This document shows, in pieces, positions 1 through 49,673 of a stretch of DNA of 49,673 nucleotides (the first letter of the stretch is position 1; each line of letters begins with the position of its first letter). The stretch is taken from positions 1-49,673 of IMG/VR virus record IMGVR_UViG_3300005617_000229, one strand, 5' to 3'. The position numbers and the translations under genes are program-made. The notes beneath the pieces were generated by a model. The model made no database searches and was not told where the DNA came from. It saw only the letters and a program-made list of their open reading frames with translations. This DNA comes from a virus.

Positions 1-11
1 TTCGCGCGAAG

Positions 12-2659: not shown

Positions 2660-2935
2660 CTACTGGCAAATCCCCGCGTTCGCTTTCGGACGCACTCGCC
2701 CCTTGACCAGCTTGCAATTGCAGTCCGCATCGCAGACCGCAACGAGGTCCGCAGCCTCGCTCTCGCGCACCAATCCGGTCACCTGCCCGCAATGCTCGGA
2801 GATGCGCACCGTCAGCACCTTCTGATTGTTGCGATGGAGGGCGGAGTCGGCGTACCAAGCGGCGTAGAAACGAACGGATGCGCACGATGTCAGCATGATG
2901 AGGGTGAGGGCGAAGAGGATACGGGTGGGGGTCAT
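2660..2935 (-). CDS. small lipoprotein
   Basis: 91 residues. The N terminus is a lipoprotein signal: a short basic start, the hydrophobic stretch ILFALTLIM, then the lipobox LTSC with the modified cysteine at residue 18. The mature part of about 74 residues has four more cysteines (HCG, VCDADCNC), so it probably folds around disulfides in the cell envelope. It starts in an ATGA overlap with the Thg1-like gene and ends the operon. Phage lipoproteins often act in superinfection exclusion, which would fit, but no family was recognised. Confidence 0.75.
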   Translation of the reverse strand: MTPTRILFALTLIMLTSCASVRFYAAWYADSALHRNNQKVLTVRISEHCGQVTGLVRESEAADLVAVCDADCNCKLVKGRVRPKANAGICQ

Positions 2936-3645
2936 GTCGTCGGCTCCTTCGTTGCAATGCGTTCGGAAATGTATTCACAGCAATCTGTGAATACGGGGAT
3001 TTTGAAGTCTGGCGCCCACGACCAACGCTCAACCGGCGAGTCGGCACGCGGCTGTCGAACGATAGACCATCCGTGCTGATAGCGGGGAAGCGTCGCGGAC
3101 CACGGCGTACCAGACGCCGCCAACATTTGAAGCATCCCGTCAACCTTCTCGCCATGGAGCTGCTTCGCGGAAAACTTCGCCTGCGCGCTGCTTTGGACGC
3201 TGTTGCGGATCGCGTCCTTTTGCCGCCAGATGAAATAGTTCACGACCTCGACCGGATCAGGAATCGTGAACACTCGCGCGTCGAACACGCCACTGCGGAA
3301 GTTGAAGGCCACTGAAGCGATTGCCGCCGATACGGATGCGATCTTCTGCACATTGCCGTCAAACCACGCCTCCGTCGTGATCGAATCGAAATCAGTGAGC
3401 ACGACGCTGATTTCGTCGCTCTGAACATAGGCGAGCTTCGCGCCCTGTGCCTCAGCGACGACCGCCATTGCGGCGCGCGTCATCGCTTCCGCCATCTCGT
3501 CGTCGAACGGCTTGACAAGTCCGCGCGTGAGGGTATGGAACGCTTTGCCGTCGAGGCGGACAATCGTGTATGTGCGACGCGGCAAGAGGAACCGCGCACG
3601 GTCCTCGTACTGCGCCTTCATCCGATCGCCGAGACTGTCGTTCAC
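2932..3645 (-). CDS. Thg1-like 3'-5' nucleotidyltransferase (TLP)
   Basis: 237 residues from the GTG at 3645, which overlaps the upstream stop by 4 bases; the longer open frame upstream only shadows the lipoprotein gene. The Thg1 superfamily adds nucleotides in the 3'-5' direction to tRNA 5' ends. Eukaryotic Thg1 adds G-1 to tRNA-His; bacterial and archaeal Thg1-like proteins repair truncated tRNAs. Seen here: RLDGKAF with metal-binding Asp32, QSDEIS with Asp77 and Glu78, and WRQKDAIRNS at 140-149, the hallmark of the TLP branch, followed by AKQLHG. All catalytic residues are present, so it should be active. It lies between two lipoprotein genes in the XRE-headed operon. A natural inference is repair of tRNAs cut by host anti-phage nucleases; this is untested. 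Confidence 0.9.
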   Translation of the reverse strand: MNDSLGDRMKAQYEDRARFLLPRRTYTIVRLDGKAFHTLTRGLVKPFDDEMAEAMTRAAMAVVAEAQGAKLAYVQSDEISVVLTDFDSITTEAWFDGNVQKIASVSAAIASVAFNFRSGVFDARVFTIPDPVEVVNYFIWRQKDAIRNSVQSSAQAKFSAKQLHGEKVDGMLQMLAASGTPWSATLPRYQHGWSIVRQPRADSPVERWSWAPDFKIPVFTDCCEYISERIATKEPTT

Positions 3646-4133
3646 TTCGCCCCGCCATGCGACAGCGCCCGCGCGCCAGTGAACTGCATCCACCACGGCG
3701 CGCACGCGATCTCCAGCTCCGGCGGCAACCCTTTGCGGATGATGGCCTCCTTCGCGGCAATGCTCGCCTGCGTGTCCTCCGCGGCGACACTCCCTGCTGC
3801 GATCGAGCTGAGGAACCCCGTAACGGGCGCCCCCTGTGGCGGAGGCGTGGCCGGCCCGAACAGAGCCATCAGCGTCGGGTGAAAGTCGATGACCTTCGCC
3901 ATGCAGTCGCTGTCGGCCTTGTCGAACGCGTTGCCGGTCGCGGCGAAGTGTGCGTCGTAGATCGCTTTGGCGTTCTGCGCGTCGGCGAGTTTCAGATCGC
4001 CCGCGCTGATCTTCCCGGCCATGAAAGCGGCGAAGGAGCCGTGCAGGGTGTCGAGATTCGTGTGGAGCTGCGTGACGGTGCCGCAGGCGGTCAGACAGAG
4101 AGTGAGGGTTGCGAGGGTGAGCGTGCGTTTCAT
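3642..4133 (-). CDS. lipoprotein, 163 residues
   Basis: A clear lipoprotein signal: basic start, hydrophobic TLATLTLCL, and lipobox LTAC with the lipidated cysteine at residue 17. The mature domain is mostly helical and alanine-rich, with a proline-rich patch near residue 95. It begins in an ATGA overlap with the gene before it and its stop overlaps the Thg1-like start, so the two are probably co-translated. No family was recognised. An envelope role such as blocking a competing phage is possible but inferred from context only. Confidence 0.75.
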   Translation of the reverse strand: MKRTLTLATLTLCLTACGTVTQLHTNLDTLHGSFAAFMAGKISAGDLKLADAQNAKAIYDAHFAATGNAFDKADSDCMAKVIDFHPTLMALFGPATPPPQGAPVTGFLSSIAAGSVAAEDTQASIAAKEAIIRKGLPPELEIACAPWWMQFTGARALSHGGAK

Positions 4134-4324
4134 GCCGCAACTCCCTCATCCTCGACGACGGATACCGCTACGAGCGCGAACCGCATGACGGGTGACTGCG
4201 CGGCTTCCTCACGCGATCCGAACCGTTCCGCCTCGTCGCGCTTGCCGGTGAACTCCGGCCCGATCCCGGTCATGCGTTTGAAGTAACTGTTTTCATGCTG
4301 ATCGTTACGGATGATATAGGTCAT
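4130..4324 (-). CDS. hypothetical protein, 64 residues
   Basis: ATG at 4324 follows a strong ribosome site (AAAAGGAGAACGCA). The start MTYIIRNDQHENSYFKR and the later acidic stretch resemble small phage proteins of unknown function. Its stop overlaps the lipoprotein start by 4 bases. No motif was recognised. Confidence 0.65.
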   Translation of the reverse strand: MTYIIRNDQHENSYFKRMTGIGPEFTGKRDEAERFGSREEAAQSPVMRFALVAVSVVEDEGVAA

Positions 4325-4732: not shown

Positions 4733-4947
4733 GCGTTCCGCCACTCGGCATCGCTCATAGCCGCAAGGATAATGTCTTTCAGTGCAGCACCCACAGTGAC
4801 CTTCTGCTGCTCGTTGAGCTTGTCGTACCAATCGCGCCATTCGTTGTGAAAGTTGATGTCCATCAGCGGCGCGCCATCATCGGACGCATCAACGATACGC
4901 GGCATCTCGTCTATGATTCGCAGATTCACGTCGGGTTGTATACTCAC
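4729..4947 (-). CDS. hypothetical acidic protein, 72 residues
   Basis: Starts in an ATGA overlap with the XRE gene and is therefore its direct partner. The product is acidic (IIDEMPRIVDASDDGAPLMD) with helical segments (NEWRDWYDKLNEQQ, VGAALKDIILAAM). A small acidic protein translated right after a DNA-binding regulator may be an anti-repressor or antitoxin-like partner, but that is context alone. Confidence 0.65.
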   Translation of the reverse strand: MSIQPDVNLRIIDEMPRIVDASDDGAPLMDINFHNEWRDWYDKLNEQQKVTVGAALKDIILAAMSDAEWRNA

Positions 4948-5288
4948 TTCCGCCCCCTTCCTCGCCGCGCAACGGGCTTCTTCGGATGGATCGCTTCGAA
5001 GTATCCGACGGTCTGACTCTTCTTCGCGGCGGCGGGCTTCTTCGTATGGCGGCGTACCGGCTTCGTCGTCGCAACAGCGTCATAGAACGAGCGCACCGAA
5101 ACGCGAAAGTAGGCCGTGATGAGGTAGATGTCGTATGCGCTCGGATGATACGTGCCGGTTTCCCACCGCGAGATCGTGTTTGGCGTGGTGCCCATGACGG
5201 CGGCGAAGTCGGCCTGAGTGAGATCGGCCATCATCCGGCGCTCTCGAATCATCGCGCCGATAGCCGCGTAAAAATCTTCTTCGTTCAT
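4944..5288 (-). CDS. XRE-family helix-turn-helix regulator
   Basis: 114 residues from the ATG at 5288. Residues about 10-60 form a Cro/C1-type domain: IGAMIRERRMMADLTQADFAAVMGTT, then recognition helix NTISRWETG and YLITAYFRVS. The C-terminal third is very basic (TTKPVRRHTKKPAAAKKS, RRGRGRK), which would add nonspecific DNA contact. There is no ribosome site, but a promoter lies upstream with its -10 exactly 7 bases before the ATG, so the mRNA is probably leaderless. A palindrome fills the promoter spacer and is the likely operator, suggesting autoregulation. It heads the operon reaching down to 2660, including the Thg1-like gene. Confidence 0.85.
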   Translation of the reverse strand: MNEEDFYAAIGAMIRERRMMADLTQADFAAVMGTTPNTISRWETGTYHPSAYDIYLITAYFRVSVRSFYDAVATTKPVRRHTKKPAAAKKSQTVGYFEAIHPKKPVARRGRGRK

Positions 5289-11137: not shown

Positions 11138-11166
11138 AACATCGGTCCCGACCGAAGCAAAGTCAA
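11138..11166 (-). promoter_or_regulatory. early leftward promoter
   Basis: TTGACT (11166-11161), 17-base spacer, GATGTT (11143-11138), followed by G. The -10 keeps the key A2 and T6 positions. It shares ACCGAwGTTG at identical spacing with the rightward promoter at 11671-11699. It should drive the operon starting at 11116. Confidence 0.7.
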
Positions 11167-11599: not shown

Positions 11600-11628
11600 A
11601 ATCTGCGTTCGCGTCGGAAGATTGTCAA
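11600..11628 (-). promoter_or_regulatory. second leftward promoter of the control region
   Basis: TTGACA (11628-11623), 17-base spacer, CAGATT (11605-11600), followed by G. The -35 is perfect; the -10 keeps A2, A4 and T6. It would transcribe the 75-residue gene at 11291-11518 with a leader of roughly 75 bases. Confidence 0.6.
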
Positions 11629-11670
11629 GCCGTCCGCGAAGTTTTTCTTTCGATCGGCGCGCGGACCCCC

Positions 11671-11699
11671 TTGACAAACTGAAGCGGCGAACCGAAGTT
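11671..11699 (+). promoter_or_regulatory. early rightward promoter, leaderless arrangement
   Basis: TTGACA (11671-11676), 17-base spacer, GAAGTT (11694-11699), then 7 bases and the ATG at 11707. With a normal start site 6-8 bases after the -10, transcription begins at or beside the ATG. It drives the rightward operon and faces the two leftward promoters. Confidence 0.7.
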
Positions 11700-11706
11700 G
11701 AGGGGC

Positions 11707-12138
11707 ATGAACAGAGAACGTATTGCTTCGATTTGCACGCTGGCTATCAGCGGTGGACTCGTCATTCGTGCTTCAACTTGGGATTCCCCGTCGCTGATGT
11801 GGGTTTCGATATTTTGGTCTTGCACTCTCCCCGCCCTGTTCGTGCTAGCGTACGTTCGCGACGCCGAGCGCATCCAGCGATGCCTTGTCGCGGTTGGCGC
11901 TTCGCTGAATGCGGCGGCGATGCTGGTAAACGGCGGAGCAATGCCGGTCGTTGGACTAGTCGCCGCTCACGGCGTATGGGTGCCGTGGAGTCACACAAGG
12001 CGGCTCTGGCTCATTGTTGACAACGCCGTGAGCTCTGGAGGTTGGTCCGTTGGCGATCTAGTCATTCTCTCCGGCATCCTGATTGCGCTTTCGAAATCTC
12101 TTCACAGACGGATTCGCGCACGGGCGGTTGCGGCATGA
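11707..12138 (+). CDS. four-span membrane protein
   Basis: 143 residues with about four hydrophobic segments: near residues 6-24, 29-50, 57-85 and 110-127. It is the first gene of the rightward operon, and the promoter's -10 ends 8 bases before the ATG, so translation is probably leaderless. The basic ends (MNRER, RRIRARAVAA) suggest both termini are cytoplasmic. No family was recognised; the first gene of a phage operon is often host-acting or exclusion-related, which is only a guess here. Confidence 0.75.
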   Translation: MNRERIASICTLAISGGLVIRASTWDSPSLMWVSIFWSCTLPALFVLAYVRDAERIQRCLVAVGASLNAAAMLVNGGAMPVVGLVAAHGVWVPWSHTRRLWLIVDNAVSSGGWSVGDLVILSGILIALSKSLHRRIRARAVAA

Positions 12139-12356
12139 CCCCCGACACCCCCGAATCCCGCCTCCTTCGCGCAATCGCTGGCGAACCGCAACCCTGCGGT
12201 CATATCGAACGCTTCGCGGAGCACATTGCGGCCCATCCCGAAGTCGTCATTTCGACCGGCGAGGATGAGGCTACGGCTCCAGCGGTTGAGTGCCAGCTTT
12301 GCGAGGTCGTTATTCCGTGGCGGATGTTTTTGAAGCTGGTTGTTGTCGAGATGTAA
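12135..12356 (+). CDS. hypothetical protein, 73 residues
   Basis: Starts in an ATGA overlap with the membrane-protein gene. The chain has CGHIERFAEHIAAHPE near residue 21 and a single CQLC pair (about residue 53), which together could bind zinc, then a hydrophobic end. No family was recognised. A gap of about 400 bases follows with only one weak candidate gene. Confidence 0.65.
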   Translation: MTPDTPESRLLRAIAGEPQPCGHIERFAEHIAAHPEVVISTGEDEATAPAVECQLCEVVIPWRMFLKLVVVEM

Positions 12357-28264: not shown

Positions 28265-28762
28265 TCAGGTTGCGCGGGCGAGGTTATTCCTGAATGCGTC
28301 GGCTACGGCAGCCGCCTCCTCTGAGGTGGAGTATGAACCTAGGTAATACGTCCTGCTGTTGAAGTGCACCTGCGCCTGATACGGATTGGTTTTGTTGCGT
28401 TTCTGTATGGCGACCCCGAACGGCAACCCTCTCGAAGACGTTATGCCACGTTTCTTTTCGGCCATGTCGCGGGCGTTGTCGAAGAATGTCCCGAGGAACA
28501 AATGTCGGACATTCACGCAGAGCCTCACATCGCACCGATGGAGAACATTCATGCCGTCAGGGATGTCCCCGTACTCAAGCATCCACGCCAGCCGATGCGC
28601 GCGAACGTGCTTCATGTCATCCCGATTGGCGACAAAAGTTCCGTACCCGTGAACGTGGTTAAAGGTTCCCATCCAAAGGATGCACCCGCTGTTCGGCTCG
28701 GGACACGTGAGCCTATCGAATCGTTCGCGCACTGACAACTTCTTGAGATTCCATGGCCCCAT
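28265..28762 (-). CDS. HNH endonuclease with AP2-like DNA-binding end
   Basis: 165 residues from the ATG at 28762, preceded by GAGGTGCAGCAA. The centre is an HNH-type nuclease (CILWMGTFNHVHGYGTF, HRLAWMLEYGDIP, VLHRCDVRLCVNVRHLFLGT). The C-terminal 40 residues (YQAQVHFNSRTYYLGSYSTSEEAAAVADAF) match the AP2-type fold used by phage homing nucleases for DNA contact. Such genes are selfish elements that spread to intact sites in related phages. It is wedged between two structural genes. Confidence 0.88.
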   Translation of the reverse strand: MGPWNLKKLSVRERFDRLTCPEPNSGCILWMGTFNHVHGYGTFVANRDDMKHVRAHRLAWMLEYGDIPDGMNVLHRCDVRLCVNVRHLFLGTFFDNARDMAEKKRGITSSRGLPFGVAIQKRNKTNPYQAQVHFNSRTYYLGSYSTSEEAAAVADAFRNNLARAT

Positions 28763-31079: not shown

Positions 31080-31369
31080 TGGATACCAGCTCTCGCCTCG
31101 AATACTCCGGCGTGCGCCGTACGGAACACCATCTGCGTTTCCGATTGCGGGTCATCGGGGTCAATCCACCACCGACTGTCAACCGATGGTTTCACGTGAA
31201 ACATATTCGGGGTAACGCCGAGATCGTGCGCCACGACGACTGCGGCGGCAGCTCCGGCAGCGACAACGGAAACAGGAGTTGACCATCGGATGACGTTCGC
31301 GAGATTCGCCGCTGCCGCAGTGTTGATCTCATCAGCATTCGGCTTGCGGACGAGTGAGCGAAGATTCAT
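31076..31369 (-). CDS. hypothetical virion-type protein, 97 residues
   Basis: Starts in an ATGA overlap with the adaptor gene and ends in one with the large tail gene. An alanine/valine-rich segment (VSVVAAGAAAAVVVAHDLG) is followed by a polar end with RWWIDPDDP. No family was recognised; the position suggests a minor connector or tail protein. Confidence 0.65.
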   Translation of the reverse strand: MNLRSLVRKPNADEINTAAAANLANVIRWSTPVSVVAAGAAAAVVVAHDLGVTPNMFHVKPSVDSRWWIDPDDPQSETQMVFRTAHAGVFEARAGIQ

Positions 31370-32130
31370 GGTGACCCCGCTACGCGCGTCTGCACTTTGC
31401 GCCGCGAGCGCTCTTTCTCGCCGGGGCTGATGAGGCGTCCCAACTTCGTTTCAACCTGCGTGCGTTTCTCGCTCGCCTCATCCCATCCCATTTTTTCCAT
31501 CGACACGGCTACGGAGAGGTCAATCGCGAGGAGCTGAAGCCTCGGCGACATGAGAAGGGTATCCGTGTCGGCAGAGAGGATGTTGTCCATTCGCGTCCCC
31601 TGCAAAACGACCGTGGCGCGATAGTCGGTCGGGGAGGTCGATGGCGTCGGCCAGAACTCCACGCGCGAGCCTGCGCGGCGGTAGAGCGTCGGCCAGCCTG
31701 TTGACGTGCGCGAGTAGAGCCCGAAGTCATCGTTCGCGCCCTGTGGTTCCGAGGACGGCTTCAGGACGACGGTGGAGGGATCGTAGGTGGCGGTGCTCTC
31801 CGCGTAGAACATGCCCTCCAGCCAGAGCATGCGCTCAGGAAGCGGCAGCCAGTTTTGTCCCGCGATCGTCACATCCCACCATCGCCAGTTTCGTAGACGC
31901 GGAAGCTGATCCAGCATCTCGCGGCCCATCGAAAGGCCGAGCGTCTGAATCTCCTCGATGGCCTGATTGCAGTAGGTCGGGATGAGCGTGTAGTGATCGT
32001 GCTGCGAAGGCAGGTTGTCGAGTTGCGCGCGGACGCGACCCTGAAACGATGTTTTCGTTCCAATCGGACCGAACGGAATGTCCGTCTCGGCGGCAGAGGT
32101 GGTCACGCTGTCTACTTCGATCCAGCTCAC
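31366..32130 (-). CDS. head-tail adaptor protein
   Basis: 254 residues from a GTG at 32130. The helical first half (HYTLIPTYCNQAIEEIQTLGLSMGREML), the beta part RNWRWWDVTI, and then WPTLYRRAGSRVEFWPTPSTSPTDYRA are the pattern of podovirus adaptor proteins that sit between portal and tail. The last third is basic and helical. A TGnTACACT promoter lies 6 bases before the start, so it may head a late transcription unit (31366 down to 20434). Confidence 0.7.
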   Translation of the reverse strand: MSWIEVDSVTTSAAETDIPFGPIGTKTSFQGRVRAQLDNLPSQHDHYTLIPTYCNQAIEEIQTLGLSMGREMLDQLPRLRNWRWWDVTIAGQNWLPLPERMLWLEGMFYAESTATYDPSTVVLKPSSEPQGANDDFGLYSRTSTGWPTLYRRAGSRVEFWPTPSTSPTDYRATVVLQGTRMDNILSADTDTLLMSPRLQLLAIDLSVAVSMEKMGWDEASEKRTQVETKLGRLISPGEKERSRRKVQTRVAGSP

Positions 32131-32136
32131 CGCGCA

Positions 32137-32145
32137 AGTGTAGCA
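32137..32145 (-). promoter_or_regulatory. late-type extended -10 promoter (TGCTACACT)
   Basis: TGCTACACT on the - strand, 6 bases before the GTG of the adaptor gene. The same motif at the same distance occurs before the starts at 36001 and 48098, and at a 10-base distance before 46213. No -35 match is visible, as expected of extended -10 sites or of activator-dependent promoters. Confidence 0.65.
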
Positions 32146-32228: not shown

Positions 32229-32528
32229 ATGAAAAAGATCTTCGTTATCGTTCTTCTAATCCTTTGTGTTGGTGTTTGTGCGGCGTCGGCTGACTGCCCA
32301 GCCATCAATAATATCGACGATCCGCCATGTGGCTGCCCATACACCGTAACCGGATCATGGTCTGCTGAGTTTGATTACGAAGACTCATCACGGATATTCG
32401 GCAGCGGAGATATTTTGACTGACTGCGATGGAGACGACGAACTCCGCACTGCCGAGTGGTCGTATTGGTGCCCGAACGGCCCCGACGATGAACAATGCAT
32501 TGCACGGCAGCACTACTTCGGGCAGTAG
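32229..32528 (+). CDS. small secreted cysteine-rich 'moron' protein
   Basis: 99 residues. The ATG has the strong ribosome site AAAGGAG. Residues 1-22 form a signal peptide (KKIFVIVLLILCVGVCAASA). The mature part of about 77 residues contains eight cysteines (DCPA, PPCGC, TDC, YWC, QCI among them) and is acidic, so it is probably a disulfide-rich protein in the periplasm or outside. It is the only + strand gene inside the late - strand operon and has its own promoter, the mark of an inserted cargo ('moron') gene. It uses more A/T than its neighbours. Function unknown. Confidence 0.75.
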   Translation: MKKIFVIVLLILCVGVCAASADCPAINNIDDPPCGCPYTVTGSWSAEFDYEDSSRIFGSGDILTDCDGDDELRTAEWSYWCPNGPDDEQCIARQHYFGQ

Positions 32529-32529
32529 G

Positions 32530-33315
32530 CTACACCGTTCGCCATGCGGCGCCGTCGTAGAAAACCGGCACTACGACGGCGCCGCCACCTACCGCGACAG
32601 CCCCGTACGTTGGCGCAAGGGCATCCGTGACGAACGCCCGCATGCCCTGCGTGCCGGCCGGAAGAGTGGCGACGGTGTAGCCCTTCAAAGTGATCGGCGC
32701 GACGACTGTAACGCCCTGAGTCGTCGCGCTGATCGTAAGGGCGGCGGTGCTATTCGTTCCAAGAATGAGCGGCTTGCTGGCGCGCGTGCCGATGATTAAG
32801 CCGTTCCCGGTGAACGAATCAATCTCGTTGTAGCCGCCCATCGTGACGCCGTATCTTGTGATTACGCGGCCAGTTCCGTGCGCGATTCCCTGCAAGGTTG
32901 CGGTATCGGCGGACGCCCTGAAGGCGGCAAGGGCGGCGGTTCCTGAGGCATTCGAGTTGCTGATGATCGCGATCGTATTCTCGTTCGCGGCATCGGCGAT
33001 CGTGAGGAATTGCCCCCCTGTCCCGCTCGGGGCGGCGCCGAGGCCGACGTTTCCGGAGGACTGGAGCGTGTCCGTCGTTGGGCCGATCAGTGCTGGATTC
33101 GTATCAACTACGAACTTTGTCCCTGTTCCTGTCTGCGAAGCAATCGCAGTAGCGTTTCCGACCGAGGTAATCGGCCCCGTCAGGTTCGCGTTGACGGTCG
33201 CGGTTCCGGTCGTGTTGCCAGTGCCGCCCGCCGCGATCGGGAGAACGATGGTCGTATCTGTCGAGTCGGAGCGGACCCATCGGCGGGAATCGTATACGAC
33301 GACGTAGCTGCTCAT
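32530..33315 (-). CDS. tail fibre / receptor-binding-type protein
   Basis: 261 residues from the ATG at 33315. The first part (LPIAAGGTGNTTGTATVNANLTGPITSVGNATAI, FVVDTNPALIGPTT) and the C-terminal end (GTQGMRAFVTDALAPTYGAVAVGGGAVVVPVFYDGAAWR) are the repetitive, glycine/threonine-rich beta sequence usual in phage tail fibres and receptor-binding proteins. Its short length suggests one domain of the adsorption apparatus. It converges on the moron gene with a one-base gap. Confidence 0.7.
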   Translation of the reverse strand: MSSYVVVYDSRRWVRSDSTDTTIVLPIAAGGTGNTTGTATVNANLTGPITSVGNATAIASQTGTGTKFVVDTNPALIGPTTDTLQSSGNVGLGAAPSGTGGQFLTIADAANENTIAIISNSNASGTAALAAFRASADTATLQGIAHGTGRVITRYGVTMGGYNEIDSFTGNGLIIGTRASKPLILGTNSTAALTISATTQGVTVVAPITLKGYTVATLPAGTQGMRAFVTDALAPTYGAVAVGGGAVVVPVFYDGAAWRTV

Positions 33316-33884
33316 GGCACATGCCGCCACGTTCTCCTTGTGACGATGATTGACACTCCGCCTCTACTCAGGCCGAATACCTTCGCGATTTCGTGCTGAG
33401 GTACGCCAACTTCGGACATCTTTCTGATTTCTGCCACGCACGCAGCTGTCAGCTTAGATCGCCTCTCGCCGCGGAGGACACTATCCGGCGCACGGCGCGA
33501 CCAGTGATCATCTCCGCGCTTTATCTTTTCTGGATGAAGACGAGCGCCGTTTTTGTCACCTACCGCCAACAACCCGAGTTTGGCGGCGTGCGTGATGTTT
33601 TCTTGGATTGTGCACCATTCAAGGTTCGTGAGTTCGTTGTGTGTCTTGATTCCGTCGATGTGGTTCGCCTGCAAATGCGGCTGAGGTCCGACAAACGCAT
33701 CCAGAACAAGCCGGTGAACGTATTGGCTAAACGCGATGCCATCCACCGACAGGCTCACCACTGGGTAACCGTTTCTCAGGCTCCTTAGGCTGAGAATCCG
33801 CCCCGAGTCATTGCGTTTAACTCGACCACCGGAAGAAACAGAGTAAGTGCCTTCGTAGCCGTAGACTGGACGCCATGATTCCAT
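33312..33884 (-). CDS. homing HNH endonuclease with NUMOD4
   Basis: 190 residues. It starts with a NUMOD4 motif (ESWRPVYGYEGTYSVSSGGRVKR). An HNH domain follows (VHRLVLDAFVGPQPHLQANHIDGIKTHNELTNLEWCTIQENITHA). A C-terminal helix-turn-helix (VGVPQHEIAKVFGLSRGGVSIIVTRR) is the DNA-binding end. It is a typical stand-alone homing endonuclease. It lies between structural genes and overlaps the tail-fibre start by 4 bases. Confidence 0.92.
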   Translation of the reverse strand: MESWRPVYGYEGTYSVSSGGRVKRNDSGRILSLRSLRNGYPVVSLSVDGIAFSQYVHRLVLDAFVGPQPHLQANHIDGIKTHNELTNLEWCTIQENITHAAKLGLLAVGDKNGARLHPEKIKRGDDHWSRRAPDSVLRGERRSKLTAACVAEIRKMSEVGVPQHEIAKVFGLSRGGVSIIVTRRTWRHVP

Positions 33885-35401: not shown

Positions 35402-36001
35402 TTACCTGACCGCGAGGATGTACGGGTAGAAGTGCCCCACCTGCGTCACTCCATCAGCCATCGTGATCCCATACGCGCCGGGAGTCACGCCGACAGCCGC
35501 GACGAGCGAAAGCGTGATGAGCGAGGCGGTGATGACCGGAGCGGATGCGTTAGTGATCCCGCTCGCATACGTGGTGACGTTCGCAGCGGTGAAGCGCTGC
35601 CCTACGAGTAGAACCGTTTTTGCGACGGTGCGAGGCATGAAGAGCGGCGCGGACTGGCTGAGGAAGTTTCCCGCGCTGTCGGTGATCGCGGTAACGATTC
35701 CAGGCTCACTCTCGTTCAGGTCGCGAAGGGAGTATTGCGGCGGGCTATTGAGCCGACGCGCGGACTCCGCTTGAACCTCGGCGACGTGCCGCTGCTCATT
35801 CGCGAGCCATTCGGCAGTGTAGGTATCAACGCACATCGGGCAATGCTCGCGCCCATCTTCGACGGTGATGTCCTCTTCAGGGACTTCGAAGCGGCACGTA
35901 TCGCAGCGCTTGACGCGGTGAGAATCAATAATGCGCTGATCGTGATCCCGCGCGTGATACTCCAAGGGTTCGATGTGGCGCCGCTTGATGAACCGGACCA
36001 T
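35402..36001 (-). CDS. zinc-ribbon virion-type protein, 199 residues
   Basis: The N-terminal 60 residues carry a zinc ribbon (CDTCRFEVP...HCPMCVDTY). The rest is a beta-rich domain (IVTAITDSAGNFLSQSAPLFMP, ASLITLSLVAAVGVTPGAYGITMADG) like minor capsid or tail proteins. The start codon lies 6 bases after a TGCTACACT promoter motif, so this gene probably heads a late transcript after the major capsid gene. Confidence 0.65.
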   Translation of the reverse strand: MVRFIKRRHIEPLEYHARDHDQRIIDSHRVKRCDTCRFEVPEEDITVEDGREHCPMCVDTYTAEWLANEQRHVAEVQAESARRLNSPPQYSLRDLNESEPGIVTAITDSAGNFLSQSAPLFMPRTVAKTVLLVGQRFTAANVTTYASGITNASAPVITASLITLSLVAAVGVTPGAYGITMADGVTQVGHFYPYILAVR

Positions 36002-36007
36002 GCCGTC

Positions 36008-36016
36008 AGTGTAGCA
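36008..36016 (-). promoter_or_regulatory. late-type extended -10 promoter (TGCTACACT)
   Basis: TGCTACACT, then 6 bases (gacggc), then the ATG at 36001. It lies in the 41-base gap behind the major capsid gene. This is the same motif and spacing as before the genes starting at 32130 and 48098. Confidence 0.7.
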
Positions 36017-36042
36017 AGGTCCGGTTCATCGTTGTGGAGCGC

Positions 36043-36990
36043 TTACGAGGTCGGGTATCCGGCGATCCCGCGCCAGTCGCGATGGTACGAGGCGCCGCGC
36101 ATGGTCACCTTGTACTTCACGGCGTTCGCGTCGAAGTCAACGTTCTCGTCGTACTTCGGCTTCTGGCGCCATTTCCAATGAAGCGGGTTGCGGTTCTTCG
36201 AAATAAGCCACCAGCCAGCGTAGGACGCGCCGAGGTACTTGCACTGGACCGGCGTGATGTCCTCGGCCATCAGCATGTTCTTGTTCCAGTTGTGCGTATC
36301 GAGCTGGCGATCCGTCTTCAAGATTTCGCCGACCCGCATGTTGTTCGCGGGGCCGTAGAGCAGGATGTACCCGCCCGTGTTTTCGATCCAGTCGCCGCGA
36401 TCGTCGAGCTGCGTGTCAAGCGCGGTGACGGCTGAGTAGAGGTTGGCCTGCGAAAGCGATGCGGCGGTCGTAACGTTGCTCTGCGTCTGCGGAGGATTCT
36501 TCAGCGTGACGTGCGAGGCGGAAAGAAGCGCGAGTCCGTCGCGGCCTGCGTACGCTCCGGCGGTCGTACCGTTGAGGATCTTCGAAGCCATCGTCTGCTC
36601 TACGCGGATCGTGCAGGAGCGCTTCCAGCGCCGCATCACGTCCTGATAGGAACCCATCTTCGCGAGGTTGGTTCCGTCCCACGGCCCGGAGTCGGCGATG
36701 TCGTCGAGGTCTTCCTGCGCCATGCGGAATCCGCGGCCATAGTTGACCGGGATGACGCGCAGCTCGGGACCGACAACGTAACTGTCGTAGTCGATGTCTT
36801 CCAGCGTGGCGCGCTGAAGCGGAGCACCGAGGCCGCCGATCTGGATGTCAACGAACTCGCCGCGACCGAACGAATCGACTTCGCAATACTTCGGATAGAC
36901 GGCGGTCTGTTCGGGCGTCTCGGCTTCCCACGCCTCGTCGATGAGGTCGCGGATGATGTTGATTGCGTCTGCTTTAGTCCAGTAAGTCAT
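36043..36990 (-). CDS. major capsid protein
   Basis: 315 residues; AAGGAG lies before the ATG. The sequence fits an HK97-fold coat protein of the gpT-like type. It has an N-terminal helical arm (DAINIIRDLIDEAWEA), beta segments about a quarter of the way in (EFVDIQIGGLG, DYDSYVVGPELRVIPVNYGRGFRM), a helix VMRRWKRSCTIRVEQTMASKIL, and a final domain (YILLYGPANNMRVGEIL, WWLISKNRNPLHW). It sits where a coat protein is expected, after the decoration-type genes and between scaffold-like and adaptor genes. Confidence 0.75.
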   Translation of the reverse strand: MTYWTKADAINIIRDLIDEAWEAETPEQTAVYPKYCEVDSFGRGEFVDIQIGGLGAPLQRATLEDIDYDSYVVGPELRVIPVNYGRGFRMAQEDLDDIADSGPWDGTNLAKMGSYQDVMRRWKRSCTIRVEQTMASKILNGTTAGAYAGRDGLALLSASHVTLKNPPQTQSNVTTAASLSQANLYSAVTALDTQLDDRGDWIENTGGYILLYGPANNMRVGEILKTDRQLDTHNWNKNMLMAEDITPVQCKYLGASYAGWWLISKNRNPLHWKWRQKPKYDENVDFDANAVKYKVTMRGASYHRDWRGIAGYPTS

Positions 36991-38661: not shown

Positions 38662-38670
38662 ATGGTAGCA
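38662..38670 (-). promoter_or_regulatory. possible extended -10 promoter (TGCTACCAT)
   Basis: TGCTACCAT matches the extended -10 pattern and differs from the late motif TGCTACACT at two positions. It lies 21 bases upstream of the start of the gene at 37903-38640, which has a ribosome site. It overlaps the end of no gene. Confidence 0.4.
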
Positions 38671-43405: not shown

Positions 43406-43644
43406 TTCGGACCCCGAAACAATGGCGCCCAGTGCGTTGGATTGACAACTTGGCACTCGTCGTTTTCCCAAGTCGCACCATTGCCGCCCTCAGGCGCAGC
43501 CACAAACTTATTCACGCCAATCGGGCAGAAGGTGAACTCGCCAGCGCTAGGCAAGGCGTCATGAACATTGATCCATTTGGTTTCGCGATTCGGGGACGCC
43601 CATTTTTCATCAACGGCATCCGAAATAACATCCTTGATGCTCAT
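43402..43644 (-). CDS. DUF551-like protein between terminase and portal
   Basis: 80 residues. TKWINVHDALPSAGEFTF and NPTHWAPL are the DUF551-type pattern, as in the genes at 17991 and 48095. It starts in an ATGA overlap with the terminase gene and ends in a TTGA overlap with the portal. An early-type small gene in this place is unusual. Confidence 0.7.
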   Translation of the reverse strand: MSIKDVISDAVDEKWASPNRETKWINVHDALPSAGEFTFCPIGVNKFVAAPEGGNGATWENDECQVVNPTHWAPLFRGPN

Positions 43645-45611
43645 CGCGCATACCTCGTCGGCGGCGGAACAAACGCTCGCGAATCAACCGGAATCCCGAG
43701 AATCGGATCAATCGCAACGCGCGGCGCTACGGCTTTCGGCTCAGCATCAATCCGTCGCGCCGCCCGAAGCACCGATCCGGCCATCGCGAGCGTATCGGCG
43801 ATTCCGTCCTGATCGGCAACCTCGTTTTTCGGCGTGGACTTTATCAACTTAAGCTCTTGGCGCGTGATGTTACCACCGAAGCGGTCAGCGCCCCGCGAAT
43901 CGCGGTACGGCGGCGCGAGGAGGAATCGGTAGACGTTCATCGGTTCGGCGACCGCTTCTTTCAGCCGCACGGCTTTGATTCCGCGCATTTGCTTGACCTT
44001 CGTCATTCGCGAGGCCATGCGACGAAGCCGCCGATCCGTTTTGATGAGGTGCTGAATGTAGGCGTCCTGATTCGCCGCTCCGTCGAAGCCGATGATGCGC
44101 GGATGCCAGATTTCATCGACGTAGACGAGCGCATTGATCCACCCTTCGACGCCAGATCGGTCGCTCAGTGTTTCGAGCTGAAATTTCACGCCGTCAGGGT
44201 CTTGACCGATGCACGAGACGCCCCAATTGTCCGTAAACTTCTGTTCGGACCACGCGGGGTCAACAAGAATCGCGCGATCGAGTTCCTGCCACGGATCGTA
44301 GCTGATGATGTCCGCGTTCTGCCGCCAATCTTCGAGCAGTTCGCCCTTCGCGTCGTAGATTGGCGGACGTTTCGGATTGCGAACTGGTTTGCCGAATTTA
44401 TCGCGGCGAAAACGGGCCACGAGAAAGTGTCCGCGCTTCTGCCAGTTCGGATTCGGATGCTCGTACGGGCCGAGCCACCAACGGTTCGGATCATCGACCA
44501 TATCGGGCGGAAACAGGCGCAGCGTGCCACCGGTAGCGGACAGGAGATACTGATTCCACCATACGCGGTAGCCGTCCTCGTCTTCCTCGCCGGAAAGAAC
44601 GTGCTCCTGCTCAGTCGTGATGCGCTCGGATGGAAAAATCTGCGGACAGGTCGGTTTGCCGCGCTCCAGAATGTTCGTGATCTTGCCCTCGTGCTCTTCG
44701 ATCGGAACCCGGAGAGTGAAGCAATCAGGGATCTTGCAAAGTTCGGTGTCGTCGTCGTCTTCATCGTGCTTCGTGCCGACTTCCAGCCGCCGAATGACGC
44801 GCGTCGGCATGTAGAAACCGGTCATGCGCTTCATGTACTTTTTCACCTCGCGCATTTCGGCGATCGAGGTCAGATCGGTGATCAAATCGTCGGTGACGAA
44901 CGTGTCGTAGTGTGCGGCTTCGTCCGTGGAGTTATATCCGCCCGCCTGAATCGTTTTCTGCGGATGCGAGATCGTTCTGCCGCCGAGAGTGATGCGCTTT
45001 TGCCCGATCATCTTCGTCAGGTCGCCATCAGGGATGCGTTCTGGGAAAAAGTCGCGGTACGTGCCCGACAAAATCGTCTGCGCGATCTGCTCACAAAACG
45101 CCCATGCCATCGGGTCAATCGCGTGCGTGATTTTGATGGTCTTGTTCGGGTCTTTCGTGGCGATGAAGAGCGTCGCGCCGTGCGTGATGGTCGAAGACTT
45201 GTAGAGGCGGCGAAAAAGGCGGAAATTGAGGATCGCGGGCCGCATCAGCGAGCCGTTGATGAGCAGATCGATCTCCGCGCGACCCTCTGAAGTCCTCCAC
45301 GGGCGCTCTCCGAACCGCGAAAAGCGCGTCGCGAAGCCGAGGCGCAGCTTTCGCGTCACGTACCCGTCGAGTTTCGGATTTTCGAGCGTTTCAATCAGCC
45401 GATCCGTGAGACCGCAAGCCATGTAAGAGAGCGGCATGTGAATCTCCGGCACGAGATCGGTGTGCTTGCAGATTTGCTTCGTGAAAAGGTACGAATCTTC
45501 AAGGATTGCGGCCTTCAGGCGCTCGAAAGCGCCCGTTGAGAGGCTGCGGCGCCGGTCGCGGGAGACGATTGCCGCTTCGGCATCCTCCTGATCGTCGAGA
45601 GGGTCGCTCAT
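43641..45611 (-). CDS. terminase large subunit
   Basis: 656 residues. The ATPase region carries a noncanonical Walker A-like RRLYKSSTITHG near residues 131-142 and a Walker B-like TFVTDDLITD near 235. The C-terminal nuclease has acidic ligands in AILVDPAWSEQKFTDNWG, IIGFDGAANQ and DQDGIADTLAMA. This motor cuts and packages the genome through the portal. Both enzyme halves look intact. It overlaps the small-terminase-type gene by 4 bases. Confidence 0.85.
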   Translation of the reverse strand: MSDPLDDQEDAEAAIVSRDRRRSLSTGAFERLKAAILEDSYLFTKQICKHTDLVPEIHMPLSYMACGLTDRLIETLENPKLDGYVTRKLRLGFATRFSRFGERPWRTSEGRAEIDLLINGSLMRPAILNFRLFRRLYKSSTITHGATLFIATKDPNKTIKITHAIDPMAWAFCEQIAQTILSGTYRDFFPERIPDGDLTKMIGQKRITLGGRTISHPQKTIQAGGYNSTDEAAHYDTFVTDDLITDLTSIAEMREVKKYMKRMTGFYMPTRVIRRLEVGTKHDEDDDDTELCKIPDCFTLRVPIEEHEGKITNILERGKPTCPQIFPSERITTEQEHVLSGEEDEDGYRVWWNQYLLSATGGTLRLFPPDMVDDPNRWWLGPYEHPNPNWQKRGHFLVARFRRDKFGKPVRNPKRPPIYDAKGELLEDWRQNADIISYDPWQELDRAILVDPAWSEQKFTDNWGVSCIGQDPDGVKFQLETLSDRSGVEGWINALVYVDEIWHPRIIGFDGAANQDAYIQHLIKTDRRLRRMASRMTKVKQMRGIKAVRLKEAVAEPMNVYRFLLAPPYRDSRGADRFGGNITRQELKLIKSTPKNEVADQDGIADTLAMAGSVLRAARRIDAEPKAVAPRVAIDPILGIPVDSRAFVPPPTRYAR

Positions 45612-46213
45612 TCCTGCACGATTTCGGCGTCCCGTACGCCTTCGATCAGCCCCGCGGGCCTGCGAAGCTGATTGATCTGCGCCATTTCGCGCAGAATCTC
45701 GTCCAGCTCCCCGCCGTCCACTTCCTTACGTGTTACGTTTTCGTTACGGGTCATGATGGCCTTGCGATCAAGCGGCTTGCCCTCTGTCCGCTCGATGCCC
45801 ATCTCGGCAGCGCGAAGGTGAACAGGATCGGGCATCTTGCTCTCGTCCTGACTGAGGCCGTGATCAACCGCTTTCGCCACCAGCTTGTAGGACTTCTTGT
45901 GTAACTCCTTTTTCATCTCCCGCATGTCCTCTTCGGCGGCGCGCAGGCGGTCCTCGATGTAGCGGTCGAGAGCGGTACGCACCCACGTCCGAACCTGAGG
46001 GATCACATCGGAATGCGGATAGCGGTCGAAACGGTGCCGGATCGCGTTGATGTGCAGGCCGAAGTGATCGGCGATGTCTTGGTGCTTCCAGTCGCAAGCC
46101 AGCATCGCCGCGATCTTGATATCCATCACGACGGCATCGTAGGTGATCTCTTTGGCGCCCGGAATCTCTCTCGGTCGCCCGACTGGTCGGCCCGTCGTTC
46201 GCGGTTTTGCCAT
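45608..46213 (-). CDS. terminase small subunit-type DNA-binding protein
   Basis: 201 residues from the ATG at 46213. Residues about 1-60 hold a basic start (KPRTTGRPVGRPREI) and a helix-turn-helix (AAMLACDWKHQDIADHFGLHINAIRHRFDRY). The middle is a charged helix (YIEDRLRAAEEDMREMKKELHKKSYKLV), fitting an oligomerising small terminase. It is next to the large subunit. A TGTTACACT motif precedes the start by 10 bases. A second in-frame ATG at 46243 overlaps the opposite gene's start. Confidence 0.8.
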   Translation of the reverse strand: MAKPRTTGRPVGRPREIPGAKEITYDAVVMDIKIAAMLACDWKHQDIADHFGLHINAIRHRFDRYPHSDVIPQVRTWVRTALDRYIEDRLRAAEEDMREMKKELHKKSYKLVAKAVDHGLSQDESKMPDPVHLRAAEMGIERTEGKPLDRKAIMTRNENVTRKEVDGGELDEILREMAQINQLRRPAGLIEGVRDAEIVQE

Positions 46214-46234
46214 TCCGCGAATCAGTGTAACATT
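46207..46234 (+). promoter_or_regulatory. early-type promoter, leaderless, overlapping the terminase promoter
   Basis: TTGCCA (46207-46212), 16-base spacer, AACATT (46229-46234), then 7 bases and the ATG at 46242. Five of six -35 positions match; the -10 keeps A2 and T6. It overlaps the start codon and the TGTTACACT element (46232-46224) of the small terminase gene on the other strand. Confidence 0.55.
46224..46232 (-). promoter_or_regulatory. late-type extended -10 promoter (TGTTACACT)
   Basis: Extended -10 motif on the - strand, 10 bases before the ATG of the small terminase gene. It shares TACACT and the upstream TG with the other three late sites. It overlaps the -10 of the + strand promoter. 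Confidence 0.55.
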
Positions 46235-46241
46235 CCGCTCC

Positions 46242-46670
46242 ATGGCGACTGAACAGACGGCGACCACTCCTTTTCTGAATCCTGCCCCCGGACGCTGCAT
46301 TGTGCGAATCGTGCCGCGACTACTGCAAGCCGAAACGAACGAAGGGCTTAAGCTGGAACTTGACGGACGGTGGGAGCACCAGCCGATGGTGGGCGTCCTG
46401 CTCGTCGTAGGCGATCCGCGCAACGAAGCTGAGAAGATCATCGCCGATTGGGCGATTGCTGAGCAGGAAGCTGGCAACCTGTTCGTGTTCAGCCAGTACG
46501 GGTCAGGCTCACCGTACTGGAACGACAGCATGAAGACGCTTCTGTCGGCGGGCTACGACTTCCGATGGCTGCAAGGTCTGCGGCTCTTCGACATCGGGCA
46601 GCTCGGGGCGACGATTTCCGGCGCGGGTCAGTATGGAGAGGTTCCTGTGCCGCTGGAGGCCGCGAATTGA
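46242..46670 (+). CDS. hypothetical nucleotide-binding-like protein, 142 residues
   Basis: ATG at 46242 without a ribosome site, just downstream of an early-type promoter, so probably leaderless. The sequence alternates helices and strands (GVLLVVGDPRNEAEKIIADWAIAEQEAGNLFVFSQYG, TLLSAGYDFRWLQGLRLFD), like a Rossmann-type or similar alpha/beta fold. No binding motif is clear and no family was recognised. It starts a two-gene + strand unit opposite the terminase. Confidence 0.65.
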   Translation: MATEQTATTPFLNPAPGRCIVRIVPRLLQAETNEGLKLELDGRWEHQPMVGVLLVVGDPRNEAEKIIADWAIAEQEAGNLFVFSQYGSGSPYWNDSMKTLLSAGYDFRWLQGLRLFDIGQLGATISGAGQYGEVPVPLEAAN

Positions 46671-46888
46671 GCGCCCAAATCGGCCGCGTCCAGTGGTCGA
46701 AACTCGGAATCACGATCTACGACGGCGAAGGATCGTTCGTCAGCCGCATCGAGCACCCGAAGGACCGGCATTTCTTCAACGAAATCATCGTCGCGGCGCT
46801 ACGCAAGGTCAGCGAAGAGCAGGCCAAGCGGCGGATGTTTCGGATGGATGACGCGGAGGCGGGCGAAGTGGTCGGAGCGGCGGTTTAA
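46667..46888 (+). CDS. hypothetical protein, 73 residues
   Basis: Starts at a TTG (46667) that overlaps the previous stop by 4 bases and has GGAGG seven bases upstream, which supports the unusual start. Beta-rich start (RVQWSKLGITIYDGEGSFVS), then a helical basic end (FFNEIIVAALRKVSEEQAKRR). Its stop and that of the convergent gene share the palindrome TTAA. No family was recognised. Confidence 0.6.
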   Translation: MSAQIGRVQWSKLGITIYDGEGSFVSRIEHPKDRHFFNEIIVAALRKVSEEQAKRRMFRMDDAEAGEVVGAAV

Positions 46889-47661: not shown

Positions 47662-47856
47662 CTACTCCCCATTCGGATCGGCTGGAACGAAGTAAACGAT
47701 TTTCACGTCATCGCGAACGACTTCATCGAGGATTTGGACGCGCTTATCGAAGGTTACGGCGGCATCGGCGGCGAAGGTTTTGTAAAGGCACGCTGTCGCT
47801 TCGAAATAGTACGGCGTGGACATGGCGAAGCGCGGAAAGACCACATCGTCGCTCAC
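47662..47856 (-). CDS. hypothetical protein, 64 residues
   Basis: Starts in an ATGA overlap with the gene before it. Mixed alpha/beta sequence (YYFEATACLYKTFAADAAVTFDKRVQILDEV), ending IVYFVPADPNGE. The closing words resemble the end of the capsid-decoration-type protein at 37003 (YFVPADA), possibly a shared short motif. No family was recognised. Confidence 0.6.
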   Translation of the reverse strand: MSDDVVFPRFAMSTPYYFEATACLYKTFAADAAVTFDKRVQILDEVVRDDVKIVYFVPADPNGE

Positions 47857-48098
47857 GGCAAATCCTTCGCCGGAATTCGCACGGCTCGCGCACCAGCTCC
47901 GACCGAATAGGCGTCGGGGTTTTCGGAGAGCGCGTTGATGGCTTTGCGCCGCGCTTCGGTGAGGGCTTGCGGGTTATCCATCAACTCTTCGCGCGATACG
48001 ACGACGGCCAAGGACGCACGGAAACGGGCGTGGACGAAGACGCCATCGGTGTCGAAGTCGCGGACTTCCTCGGTGTCGATGTTTTGCGGGTCGATCAT
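47853..48098 (-). CDS. hypothetical protein, 81 residues
   Basis: Its ATG lies exactly 6 bases after a TGCTACACT late-promoter motif, so this gene probably starts a late transcript. The product has an acidic start (NIDTEEVRDFDTDG) and a helix (ALTEARRKAINALSEN). No family was recognised. It overlaps the stop of the upstream DUF551-type gene by 4 bases. Confidence 0.65.
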   Translation of the reverse strand: MIDPQNIDTEEVRDFDTDGVFVHARFRASLAVVVSREELMDNPQALTEARRKAINALSENPDAYSVGAGARAVRIPAKDLP

Positions 48099-48778
48099 GT
48101 CGGGAGTGTAGCAGATGGATCGTTGTATTCGCTCGGATGAAGCGCGAAACCCATCCTAGACGGCGGGGCTGGTAGGGGCATCCAATGGGTGACGGGAGCC
48201 GCAGTCATTCCAGCCTTTTCCCATCCGTATTCGGCGGAGACGTAGCGCCCGAAACTAAAAGCCCATGCGCCGCTGCCGATGCTTGAAAAGCAAAGAACGA
48301 GCGTTCCGAGAGGTTCCGGCAGGCGTTCGGTGACGGGAATCCAGCGGGGAAGCGTAACGACCTCGCGCCAAATCCATCGGCGACTCTCGCCGCGATCACG
48401 GATGAATTCTCGCTGCGCGGTGATCTTCGCGATGCCGTTTTCGGGGTCGAATTTCCCCATCCGGATAGTCCGGTAGATATCGCGACCTGAACCGTTCTGG
48501 CAGTCGGGGTAGGGGCACTTCGGAATGCCGGAATAGTCGTGCTCGGCGCAGGTGTGTGTGCCCCAGTCGTATTCAGGCAGATGAGCCTCGATTGTTAGCC
48601 CGTGCGGCTTCTGAAAATCGACAGAGAAACGCTGCTTTACTGGGTATTTTACGGAGTCACCGACTTGCGGATCTTTGGCGGTCAGGCGCTCTATCTCGGC
48701 GATGAGGGTGTCGATGTGCGGGTTCGGTACGTCGCGCTCGGCGTTGTCGGCTCGGATGGCTTCCAGATCAATCGGCAC
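48095..48778 (-). CDS. protein with C-terminal DUF551-like domain
   Basis: 227 residues. The N-terminal helix (DLEAIRADNAERDVP...HIDTLIAEIERL) is followed by a beta part with HTCAEHDYSGIPKCPYPDCQNG, a possible zinc site. From about residue 140 the DUF551 pattern appears (RWIPVTERLPEPLGTLVLCFSS, VTHWMPLPAPP). Such composite proteins are common in phages and unexplained. Confidence 0.75.
   Translation of the reverse strand: MPIDLEAIRADNAERDVPNPHIDTLIAEIERLTAKDPQVGDSVKYPVKQRFSVDFQKPHGLTIEAHLPEYDWGTHTCAEHDYSGIPKCPYPDCQNGSGRDIYRTIRMGKFDPENGIAKITAQREFIRDRGESRRWIWREVVTLPRWIPVTERLPEPLGTLVLCFSSIGSGAWAFSFGRYVSAEYGWEKAGMTAAPVTHWMPLPAPPSRMGFALHPSEYNDPSATLPT
48105..48113 (-). promoter_or_regulatory. late-type extended -10 promoter (TGCTACACT)
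   Basis: TGCTACACT, then 6 bases (cccgac), then the ATG at 48098. It lies inside the 3' end of the DUF551-type gene. This site is the clearest evidence that the motif is a promoter rather than an intergenic coincidence, because it repeats the spacing of the sites at 32137 and 36008. Confidence 0.65.
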
Positions 48779-49381: not shown

Positions 49382-49410
49382 AACTTGGGCCCGAGAGGGC
49401 GGATTGTCAA
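49382..49410 (-). promoter_or_regulatory. early-type promoter, leaderless arrangement
   Basis: TTGACA (49410-49405), 17-base spacer, CAAGTT (49387-49382), 7 bases, then the ATG at 49374. It has the same layout and spacing as the rightward promoter at 11671-11699 and should drive 49374 down to 46885. Confidence 0.7.
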
Positions 49411-49429: not shown

Positions 49430-49673
49430 CACTCGGCGGCTCGCTGTTGACGGGGCGCGACCCCATCACGTTTCGAGTACCGCCGAGTGTAGGCGCGAAG
49501 GGCCCGAAAAGAGGGTAGCAGAATTGGGTATTTTTTGTGGTGTCGAATGGACTTTCGCGACCACCCTCCCTTCGAGGTACCGGGGGAGGGGGCCTACCAC
49601 CCCCTCTTCGGCGACTCACCCGCTGAGCAACTTTGCGCTTCAAAGTTCTCCGACTTTCACCGAGAATGTGCCA
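49430..49673. other. right-end non-coding stretch with hairpins
   Basis: No gene is seen. A perfect 10-bp inverted repeat (CACTCGGCGG at 49430-49439, CCGCCGAGTG at 49480-49489) surrounds a GGGG-CGCGA-CCCC hairpin. Further right lie a GAGGGGG/CCCCCTC hairpin with a 7-base loop and an AACTTTG-CGCTT-CAAAGTT hairpin. The roles are unknown. If the genome is circular, this part adjoins the folded region at the left end. Confidence 0.4.

What the first reader, a model, noticed from the sequence alone, without database searches (positions are those of the whole stretch)
48099..48113. Late promoter class TGnTACACT at fixed distance from late-gene starts
TGCTACACT is followed by exactly 6 bases and a start codon at 48098, 36001 and 32130; TGTTACACT precedes the small terminase start by 10 bases. 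There is no recognisable -35. This suggests a second promoter type, either extended -10 promoters needing an activator or a modified polymerase, controlling late genes, again with leaderless mRNAs. I find no sigma factor gene, so an activator among the unknown early proteins would be needed.
Basis: partly seen in the sequence, partly recalled or inferred. Interest (0 to 1): 0.75.

Follow-up and report, generated by a model that had tools for sequence, protein, structure and literature searches.

The report
Leaderless extended -10 phage late promoters
This unknown soil phage appears to start its structural-gene operons from one short, strictly conserved promoter sequence, TGNTACACT, which lacks a -35 box and puts the first RNA base on or next to the start codon; this is a real, conserved set of promoters of a known type rather than proof of a new control system.

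Summary
TGNTACACT occurs four times in the window, always on the late strand; shuffles give about 0.2. Three copies sit exactly 6 nt before a start codon, the fourth 10 nt before the putative small terminase. Two close relatives each have four copies, all on the late strand. At three loci the upstream sequence is unrelated between the genomes, yet conservation begins abruptly at (TC)TGCTACACT or the variant GCGTGCTACCAT. No -35 and no conserved upstream block are present. With the hexamer at -12 to -7, a start codon at gap 6 is +1.

Best reading: extended -10, sigma70-type promoters giving leaderless or near-leaderless mRNAs at the heads of late operons. A second class exists, TTGAC[AT]-N17-nAnnTT, mainly in the divergent early control region: strong -35, weak -10, so the classes are complementary.

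A DNA-binding activator is not supported. A polymerase-binding switch like P23-45 gp39 or T4 AsiA fits but is unshown. TGNTACACT also follows a -35 in unrelated viruses, often at leaderless spacing, so no special polymerase is required. Timing and host are unknown. Verdict: new member of a known kind.

The parts
48105..48113 (-). Extended -10 element TGCTACACT, 6 nt before ATG 48098; late unit A (48098 leftward to about 46885)
   Evidence: identical in W, G1, G2 with unrelated upstream DNA; gap 6 in all three
47853..48098 (-). 81-aa leaderless ORF of unknown function, first gene of unit A
   Evidence: no PHROG hit
46224..46232 (-). Extended -10 element TGTTACACT, 10 nt before the TerS ATG 46213 (11 nt in G1); late unit B (TerS, TerL, MCP)
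45608..46213 (-). Putative terminase small subunit, near-leaderless start
   Evidence: Lies directly upstream of TerL; frame comparison with G1. No family hit; the TerS assignment is by position
43641..45611 (-). Terminase large subunit
   Evidence: phrog_38, 4e-17
36043..36990 (-). Major capsid protein (probable)
   Evidence: phrog_371, 5e-4; 78-99% identical in relatives
36008..36016 (-). Extended -10 element TGCTACACT, 6 nt before ATG 36001; late unit C
   Evidence: identical in G2; G1 has its own TGCTACACT just after the MCP stop with ATG at gap 8
35988..36031 (-). Hairpin with 13-bp perfect arms, promoter 36008-36016 in its loop, just after the MCP stop
   Evidence: -31 kcal/mol; a hairpin of different sequence is at this place in the other genomes examined
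35402..36001 (-). 199-aa leaderless ORF, first gene of unit C
32137..32145 (-). Extended -10 element TGCTACACT, 6 nt before GTG 32130; late unit D (probable tail genes)
   Evidence: conserved in G1 (gap 7) and G2 (gap 6)
31366..32130 (-). 254-aa leaderless ORF (GTG), first gene of unit D; relatives without the motif have other, partly SD-like leaders here
32229..32528 (+). Divergent signal-peptide ORF (moron-like), own promoter TTGCGC-N17-TAATTT; replaced by an unrelated signal-peptide ORF in G1/G2
38662..38670 (-). Variant extended -10 element TGCTACCAT, 21 nt before ATG 38640, which has an SD-like GAGGTGA
   Evidence: GCGTGCTACCATCTT conserved in three genomes with unrelated upstream DNA
49512..49520 (-). 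Variant TGCTACCCT near the right end, conserved in G2
11671..11699 (+). Class 1 promoter TTGACA-N17-GAAGTT, 7 nt before ATG 11707
   Evidence: conserved in G1 and G2
11600..11628 (-). Class 1 promoter TTGACA-N17-CAGATT, back to back with 11671
   Evidence: conserved in G1 and G2
11138..11166 (-). Class 1 promoter TTGACT-N17-GATGTT, 21 nt before ATG 11116
   Evidence: G1 counterpart TTGACT-N17-CAAGTT-N6-ATG
49382..49410 (-). Class 1 promoter TTGACA-N17-CAAGTT, 7 nt before an ATG, upstream of the late units
   Evidence: conserved in G1 and G2

Best explanation
TGNTACACT is an extended -10 promoter element (TGn plus a TANNNT hexamer) read by the host housekeeping sigma70/sigmaA-type RNA polymerase holoenzyme without a -35 contact. 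With the hexamer at -12 to -7, the start codon at gap 6 is the +1 base, so transcription starts on the A or G of ATG/GTG and gives leaderless mRNA; the terminase unit gets a leader of about 4 nt. Each copy heads one leftward late unit (unknown small genes; terminase to capsid; post-capsid genes; probable tail genes) and restarts transcription where the late region is interrupted by a variable or oppositely oriented cassette or by a hairpin. A different class, TTGAC[AT]-N17-nAnnTT with strong -35 and weak -10, serves the divergent early control region. Shown by sequence: motif, spacing, conservation, lack of -35, two classes, gene context. Inferred: promoter activity, leaderless 5' ends, late timing, and the polymerase used.
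For: Enrichment and strand bias. Exact gap 6 at three unrelated gene starts. TGCTACACT is the most frequent 9-mer within 40 nt upstream of predicted starts across W, G1 and G2, and 8 of its 9 occurrences in those genomes are there. TANNNT peaks at gap 6: 4 observed against about 0.3 expected, and again 4 in G2. Phylogenetic footprints begin right at the element while the upstream DNA is unrelated. The complementary -35-bearing class is found at 4 sites against 0.25 expected. In unrelated viruses TTGAC-N17-TACACT with TGn, ORF-backed, peaks at gaps 6-7, with one contig carrying six copies at gap 6. Literature: TANNNT about 12 bp before starts marks leaderless genes (PMC3160421); extended -10 replaces the -35 contact (PMC7403470); 5' ATG or GTG suffices in mycobacteria (PMC4633059).
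Against: No RNA 5' ends are available and the host is unknown, so leaderless translation there is assumed. The four sites share CAC inside the hexamer, more than a minimal TGnTANNNT demands, which could mean a more selective reader than plain sigma70. G5 and G6 lack the motif and G4 has it only inside a gene; at the terminase start G4-G6 instead show a -35-like TTGAC/TTGAA element about 31 nt before an ATG, so the class belongs to one sublineage.
Confidence: 0.8

Rival explanations
1. Promoter switch: an early phage protein binds RNA polymerase or sigma region 4, disables -35-dependent class 1 promoters, and leaves the extended -10 class 2 promoters as the only active ones late (P23-45 gp39 or T4 AsiA logic without a MotA-like activator). 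This is compatible with the best explanation and adds the timing step.
For: The two classes are complementary: class 1 has TTGACA with a weak -10, class 2 has a strong extended -10 and no -35. gp39 and AsiA spare extended -10 promoters (PMC7403470). No upstream activator site is conserved, as such a mechanism predicts.
Against: No candidate protein was identified; the Pfam and PHROG hits shown include no sigma, anti-sigma or RNAP-binding family. Late expression could come without a switch. One class 1 promoter (49410) lies upstream of the late units on the same strand.
Confidence: 0.3
2. DNA-binding activator: an early phage protein binds upstream of each site and recruits polymerase (one of the first reader's two options).
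For: No -35 is present. An HTH_3 protein is encoded at 4944-5288.
Against: -70 to -3 is unalignable at three loci across W, G1 and G2 (7-11% identical), so there is no shared site at a fixed distance. The HTH_3 protein resembles Cro/CI-type repressors.
Confidence: 0.08
3. A phage-encoded or alternative sigma factor, or a phage polymerase, reads TGNTACACT.
For: The hexamer is invariant (TACACT) at four sites, tighter than in class 1.
Against: No sigma or RNA polymerase family is seen in the window, though divergent enzymes could be missed. TGNTACACT occurs with an ordinary -35 at 17 nt in unrelated viruses.
Confidence: 0.06
4. Not a promoter: the motif is a recombination seam or another signal shared at module boundaries.
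For: Alignment blocks between the genomes end at or within a few bp of the motif at 48113 and 38670, and at 32145 against G2.
Against: Fixed distance to start codons, strand bias and match to the extended -10 consensus are not needed for a seam; module borders naturally coincide with promoters.
Confidence: 0.04

Closest known systems
Middle and late promoters of Thermus phage P23-45 (host RNAP, extended -10 class, gp39)
   Same: Extended -10 promoters without dependence on a -35 serve phage genes after the early phase (PMC7403470, PMC10770324).
   Different: No gp39 or gp76 homologue and no recognisable phage RNA polymerase seen here; relationship of the phages not shown, host unknown, timing unmeasured.
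TA-led leaderless genes (TANNNT about 12 bp upstream of the start) of Actinobacteria, Deinococcus-Thermus, Acidobacteria and others
   Same: Same hexamer pattern and same distance to the start codon (PMC3160421).
   Different: Here the hexamer is fixed as TACACT with TGn before it; that paper reports a TG peak mainly for low-GC genomes, while this phage is 60% GC.
Extended -10 sigma70 promoters
   Same: TGn directly before the -10 hexamer and no -35 (PMC7403470).
   Different: The T-17/R-16 part of the E. coli TRTG form is not met; the two bases before TG are usually TC here.
T4 middle promoters (AsiA/MotA)
   Same: -35 contact not used, extended -10 used (own knowledge and PMC7403470).
   Different: No MotA-box-like conserved upstream block.

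Membership tests
Extended -10 sigma70-type promoter | TGn immediately upstream of a -10 hexamer with T1, A2 and T6 | tested here: met
   TGNTACACT at all four sites and in G1/G2
Extended -10 sigma70-type promoter | No -35 hexamer needed | tested here: met
   Best -35 match 1-3 of 6, as background; functional need itself not testable
Extended -10 sigma70-type promoter | Transcription in vitro by host sigmaA holoenzyme | not testable with these tools
   Host unknown
Leaderless (TA-led) genes | TANNNT placed so that +1 is the start codon (gap about 6-7) | tested here: met
   Gap 6 at three starts in W, 6-7 at the homologous starts in G1 and G2 that carry the motif; terminase gap 10-11 and G1 post-capsid gap 8 are exceptions
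Leaderless (TA-led) genes | mRNA 5' end at the start codon | not testable with these tools
   Needs primary 5' end mapping
P23-45-type middle/late promoter system | Late genes served by extended -10 promoters | tested here: met
   Terminase-capsid, post-capsid and probable tail units; lateness is inferred from gene content
P23-45-type middle/late promoter system | Phage RNAP-binding switch protein (gp39/gp76) | tested here: inconclusive
   None seen in the Pfam/PHROG results shown; such proteins are small and divergent
P23-45-type middle/late promoter system | Phage RNA polymerase for early genes | tested here: inconclusive
   No RNAP family hit; class 1 promoters look sigma70-like
T4-type activator-dependent middle promoters | Conserved activator box upstream of the -10 | tested here: not met
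   7-11% identity at -70 to -3 across three genomes at three loci

The most novel reading that the evidence does not exclude
The phage carries a new, unrelated family of RNA-polymerase-binding switch protein that turns off -35-dependent early promoters and leaves a uniform set of leaderless TGNTACACT promoters as the only late ones, so that the promoter class changes as a whole at the early-to-late transition.
Probability: 0.2. Interest if true: 0.65.

Novelty: new member of a known kind. Interest (0 to 1): 0.4.

Why it matters
It gives a testable transcription map for an uncultured phage group with no match in the phage collection searched, with two promoter classes of opposite build. If the classes are temporally separated, this would be another instance of the P23-45 solution and would point to an unknown polymerase-binding protein. 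It also shows how late operons may be restarted after cassette insertions by a nine-base element whose placement also sets the start of translation.

Tried and rejected
Inverted repeat around 32145 (CCGCGCAAG...CTTGCGCGG): rejected as a conserved operator, because the conserved GCGCAAG is the -35 (TTGCGC) of the divergent ORF at 32229 and the downstream arm is not kept in G1 or G2; G1 has a different A-rich repeat there that may be chance. A strong hairpin near 32547-32584 was considered as a terminator; it lies in coding sequence and has no U tract beyond the stem, so it was not counted. Host search: capsid and portal queries found nothing in genome contigs, no phage record matched the terminase, portal or late-region DNA, and RecT and Rep hits were spread over many hosts. 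One small early protein (12135-12356) was folded as a switch candidate: pLDDT 54, uninformative. A literature search for the exact 9-mer returned no promoter study among the 20 papers listed. Rfam: no hit. The stock sigma70 consensus scan shows no enrichment, because class 1 has a weak -10 and class 2 has no -35.

Full report
Observation. TGNTACACT has four exact matches in the window, all on the - strand (48105-48113, 46224-46232, 36008-36016, 32137-32145), against 0.2-0.26 in dinucleotide shuffles. Three are followed by exactly six bases and a start codon of a predicted gene (48098 ATG, 36001 ATG, 32130 GTG). The fourth precedes the putative terminase small-subunit ATG at 46213 by ten bases; in relative G1 the ATG upstream of the motif is out of the terminase frame, which places the start downstream of the motif. 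One-mismatch matches are not enriched.

Relatives. The window is an IMG/VR virus record without a match in the phage collection. Eight related IMG/VR contigs were found. G1 (IMGVR_UViG_3300025936_000034) and G2 (IMGVR_UViG_3300026023_000008) are close over the late region (mostly 85-95% in aligned DNA); each has exactly four TGNTACACT, again all on the late strand. G4, G5 and G6 are more distant; G5 and G6 lack the motif and G4 has one copy inside a gene.

Footprint. Aligned on the motif, W, G1 and G2 are 7-11% identical over -70 to -3 at the 48098, 32130 and 38640 gene starts, but 100% identical from -2 to +9 (the 38640 element is the variant TGCTACCAT). At 48098 the conserved stretch is TCTGCTACACTCCCRACATGATCGAC. 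The distance to the start codon is 6 in all three genomes at 48098 and 6, 7, 6 at 32130. At the capsid end G1 has a different insert, yet also carries TGCTACACT there, 8 nt before an ATG of a 110-aa ORF. The conserved unit is therefore the short element itself.

What it is. TGn-TACACT fits the extended -10 element plus TANNNT hexamer. No -35 is present: the best match is 1-3 of 6 at 12 sites, as in random positions. In standard numbering the hexamer is -12 to -7, so a start codon at gap 6 is +1. Across all 85 predicted genes TANNNT peaks at gap 6 (4 observed, about 0.3 expected), with the same peak in G2. TANNNT about 12 bp before the start is the published mark of leaderless genes (PMC3160421), and extended -10 elements bypass the -35 contact (PMC7403470). 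Activity, 5' ends and timing are inferred.

A first promoter class. Searching for leaderless geometry with a -35 revealed TTGAC[AT]-N17-nAnnTT at +11671 (7 nt before ATG 11707), -11628, -11166 and -49410: four sites against 0.25 in shuffles, with counterparts in G1 and G2. Three of the four lie in the divergent early control region. Class 1 has a strong -35 and a poor -10; class 2 has a strong extended -10 and no -35. It is also what a switch acting on -35 recognition would need, but no such protein was identified, and the class 1 site at 49410 shows that the split is not perfectly early against late by position.

Context of each site. The 46232 promoter is back to back with a rightward gene pair (46242-46888). 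The 32145 promoter is back to back with a rightward signal-peptide ORF (32229-32528) with its own TTGCGC-N17-TAATTT promoter; G1 and G2 have an unrelated signal-peptide ORF there but the same promoter layout. Genomes without the motif at this point have other leaders before the homologous gene. The 36016 promoter follows the capsid gene, where every genome examined has a strong hairpin of different sequence; in W and G2 the promoter is in the loop, in G1 it is in the 3' arm. The 48113 and 38670 elements lie at the edge of alignable sequence. These positions suggest that the element restarts transcription of a late block after an interruption.

Generality. Another contig (L041) has four TGCTACACT, two directly after GC-rich hairpins. 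So TGNTACACT looks like an ordinary sigma70-type element in several phage groups, and a dedicated polymerase is not required.

Verdict. Observation confirmed; interpretation partly supported. The extended -10, leaderless, late-operon reading is likely (0.8). A polymerase-binding switch on top of it is possible (0.3); an upstream DNA-binding activator is unlikely (0.08). New member of a known kind.

Noticed in passing
window 11600-11699, 11138-11166, 49382-49410: Class 1 promoters TTGAC[AT]-N17-nAnnTT; in most sites the spacer ends in GACC, AACC or similar just before the -10; conserved in G1 and G2.
   Followed up: partly
window 32229-32528 (+): Small signal-peptide ORF antisense to the late operon; G1 and G2 carry an unrelated signal-peptide ORF (about 167 aa) at the same place under a similar promoter.
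   Followed up: partly
window 35988-36031 and the same place in G1, G2, G4-G6, L021: A strong hairpin right after the capsid stop in every genome examined, with different sequence in most of them.
   Followed up: partly
window 4944-5288 (-): HTH_3 repressor-like protein with a leaderless promoter TTGCGT-N17-TACTAT-N7-ATG whose spacer holds the dyad CATCC...GGATG, possibly its own operator.
   Followed up: no
window 2932-4149 (-): Thg1 (tRNA-His guanylyltransferase) domain, present in this phage but not in the five relatives searched.
   Followed up: partly
window 28265-28672 and 33312-33884 (-): Two HNH endonuclease genes within the late region.
   Followed up: no
window 1-260 and G1 about 40.75-40.95 kb: Partly conserved non-coding stretch (GACCGGGACG...GGATCGACTACC...CGTTGCCCGGATTT...GGTGCC) next to the contig end; no Rfam hit.
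   Followed up: no
L190 (IMGVR_UViG_3300021133_000018): Six near-identical leaderless promoters TTGAC-N14-TGATACACT-N6-ATG in 7.5 kb, each before a small ORF.
   Followed up: no
L041 (IMGVR_UViG_3300007074_000474): Four TGCTACACT in 8 kb at 66% GC, two directly after GC-rich terminator-like hairpins.
   Followed up: no
G4 34.9 kb, G5 11.6 kb, G6 5.8 kb: Terminase small-subunit starts in distant relatives have a TTGACY/TTGAAC element about 31 nt before an ATG instead of TGTTACACT.
   Followed up: partly
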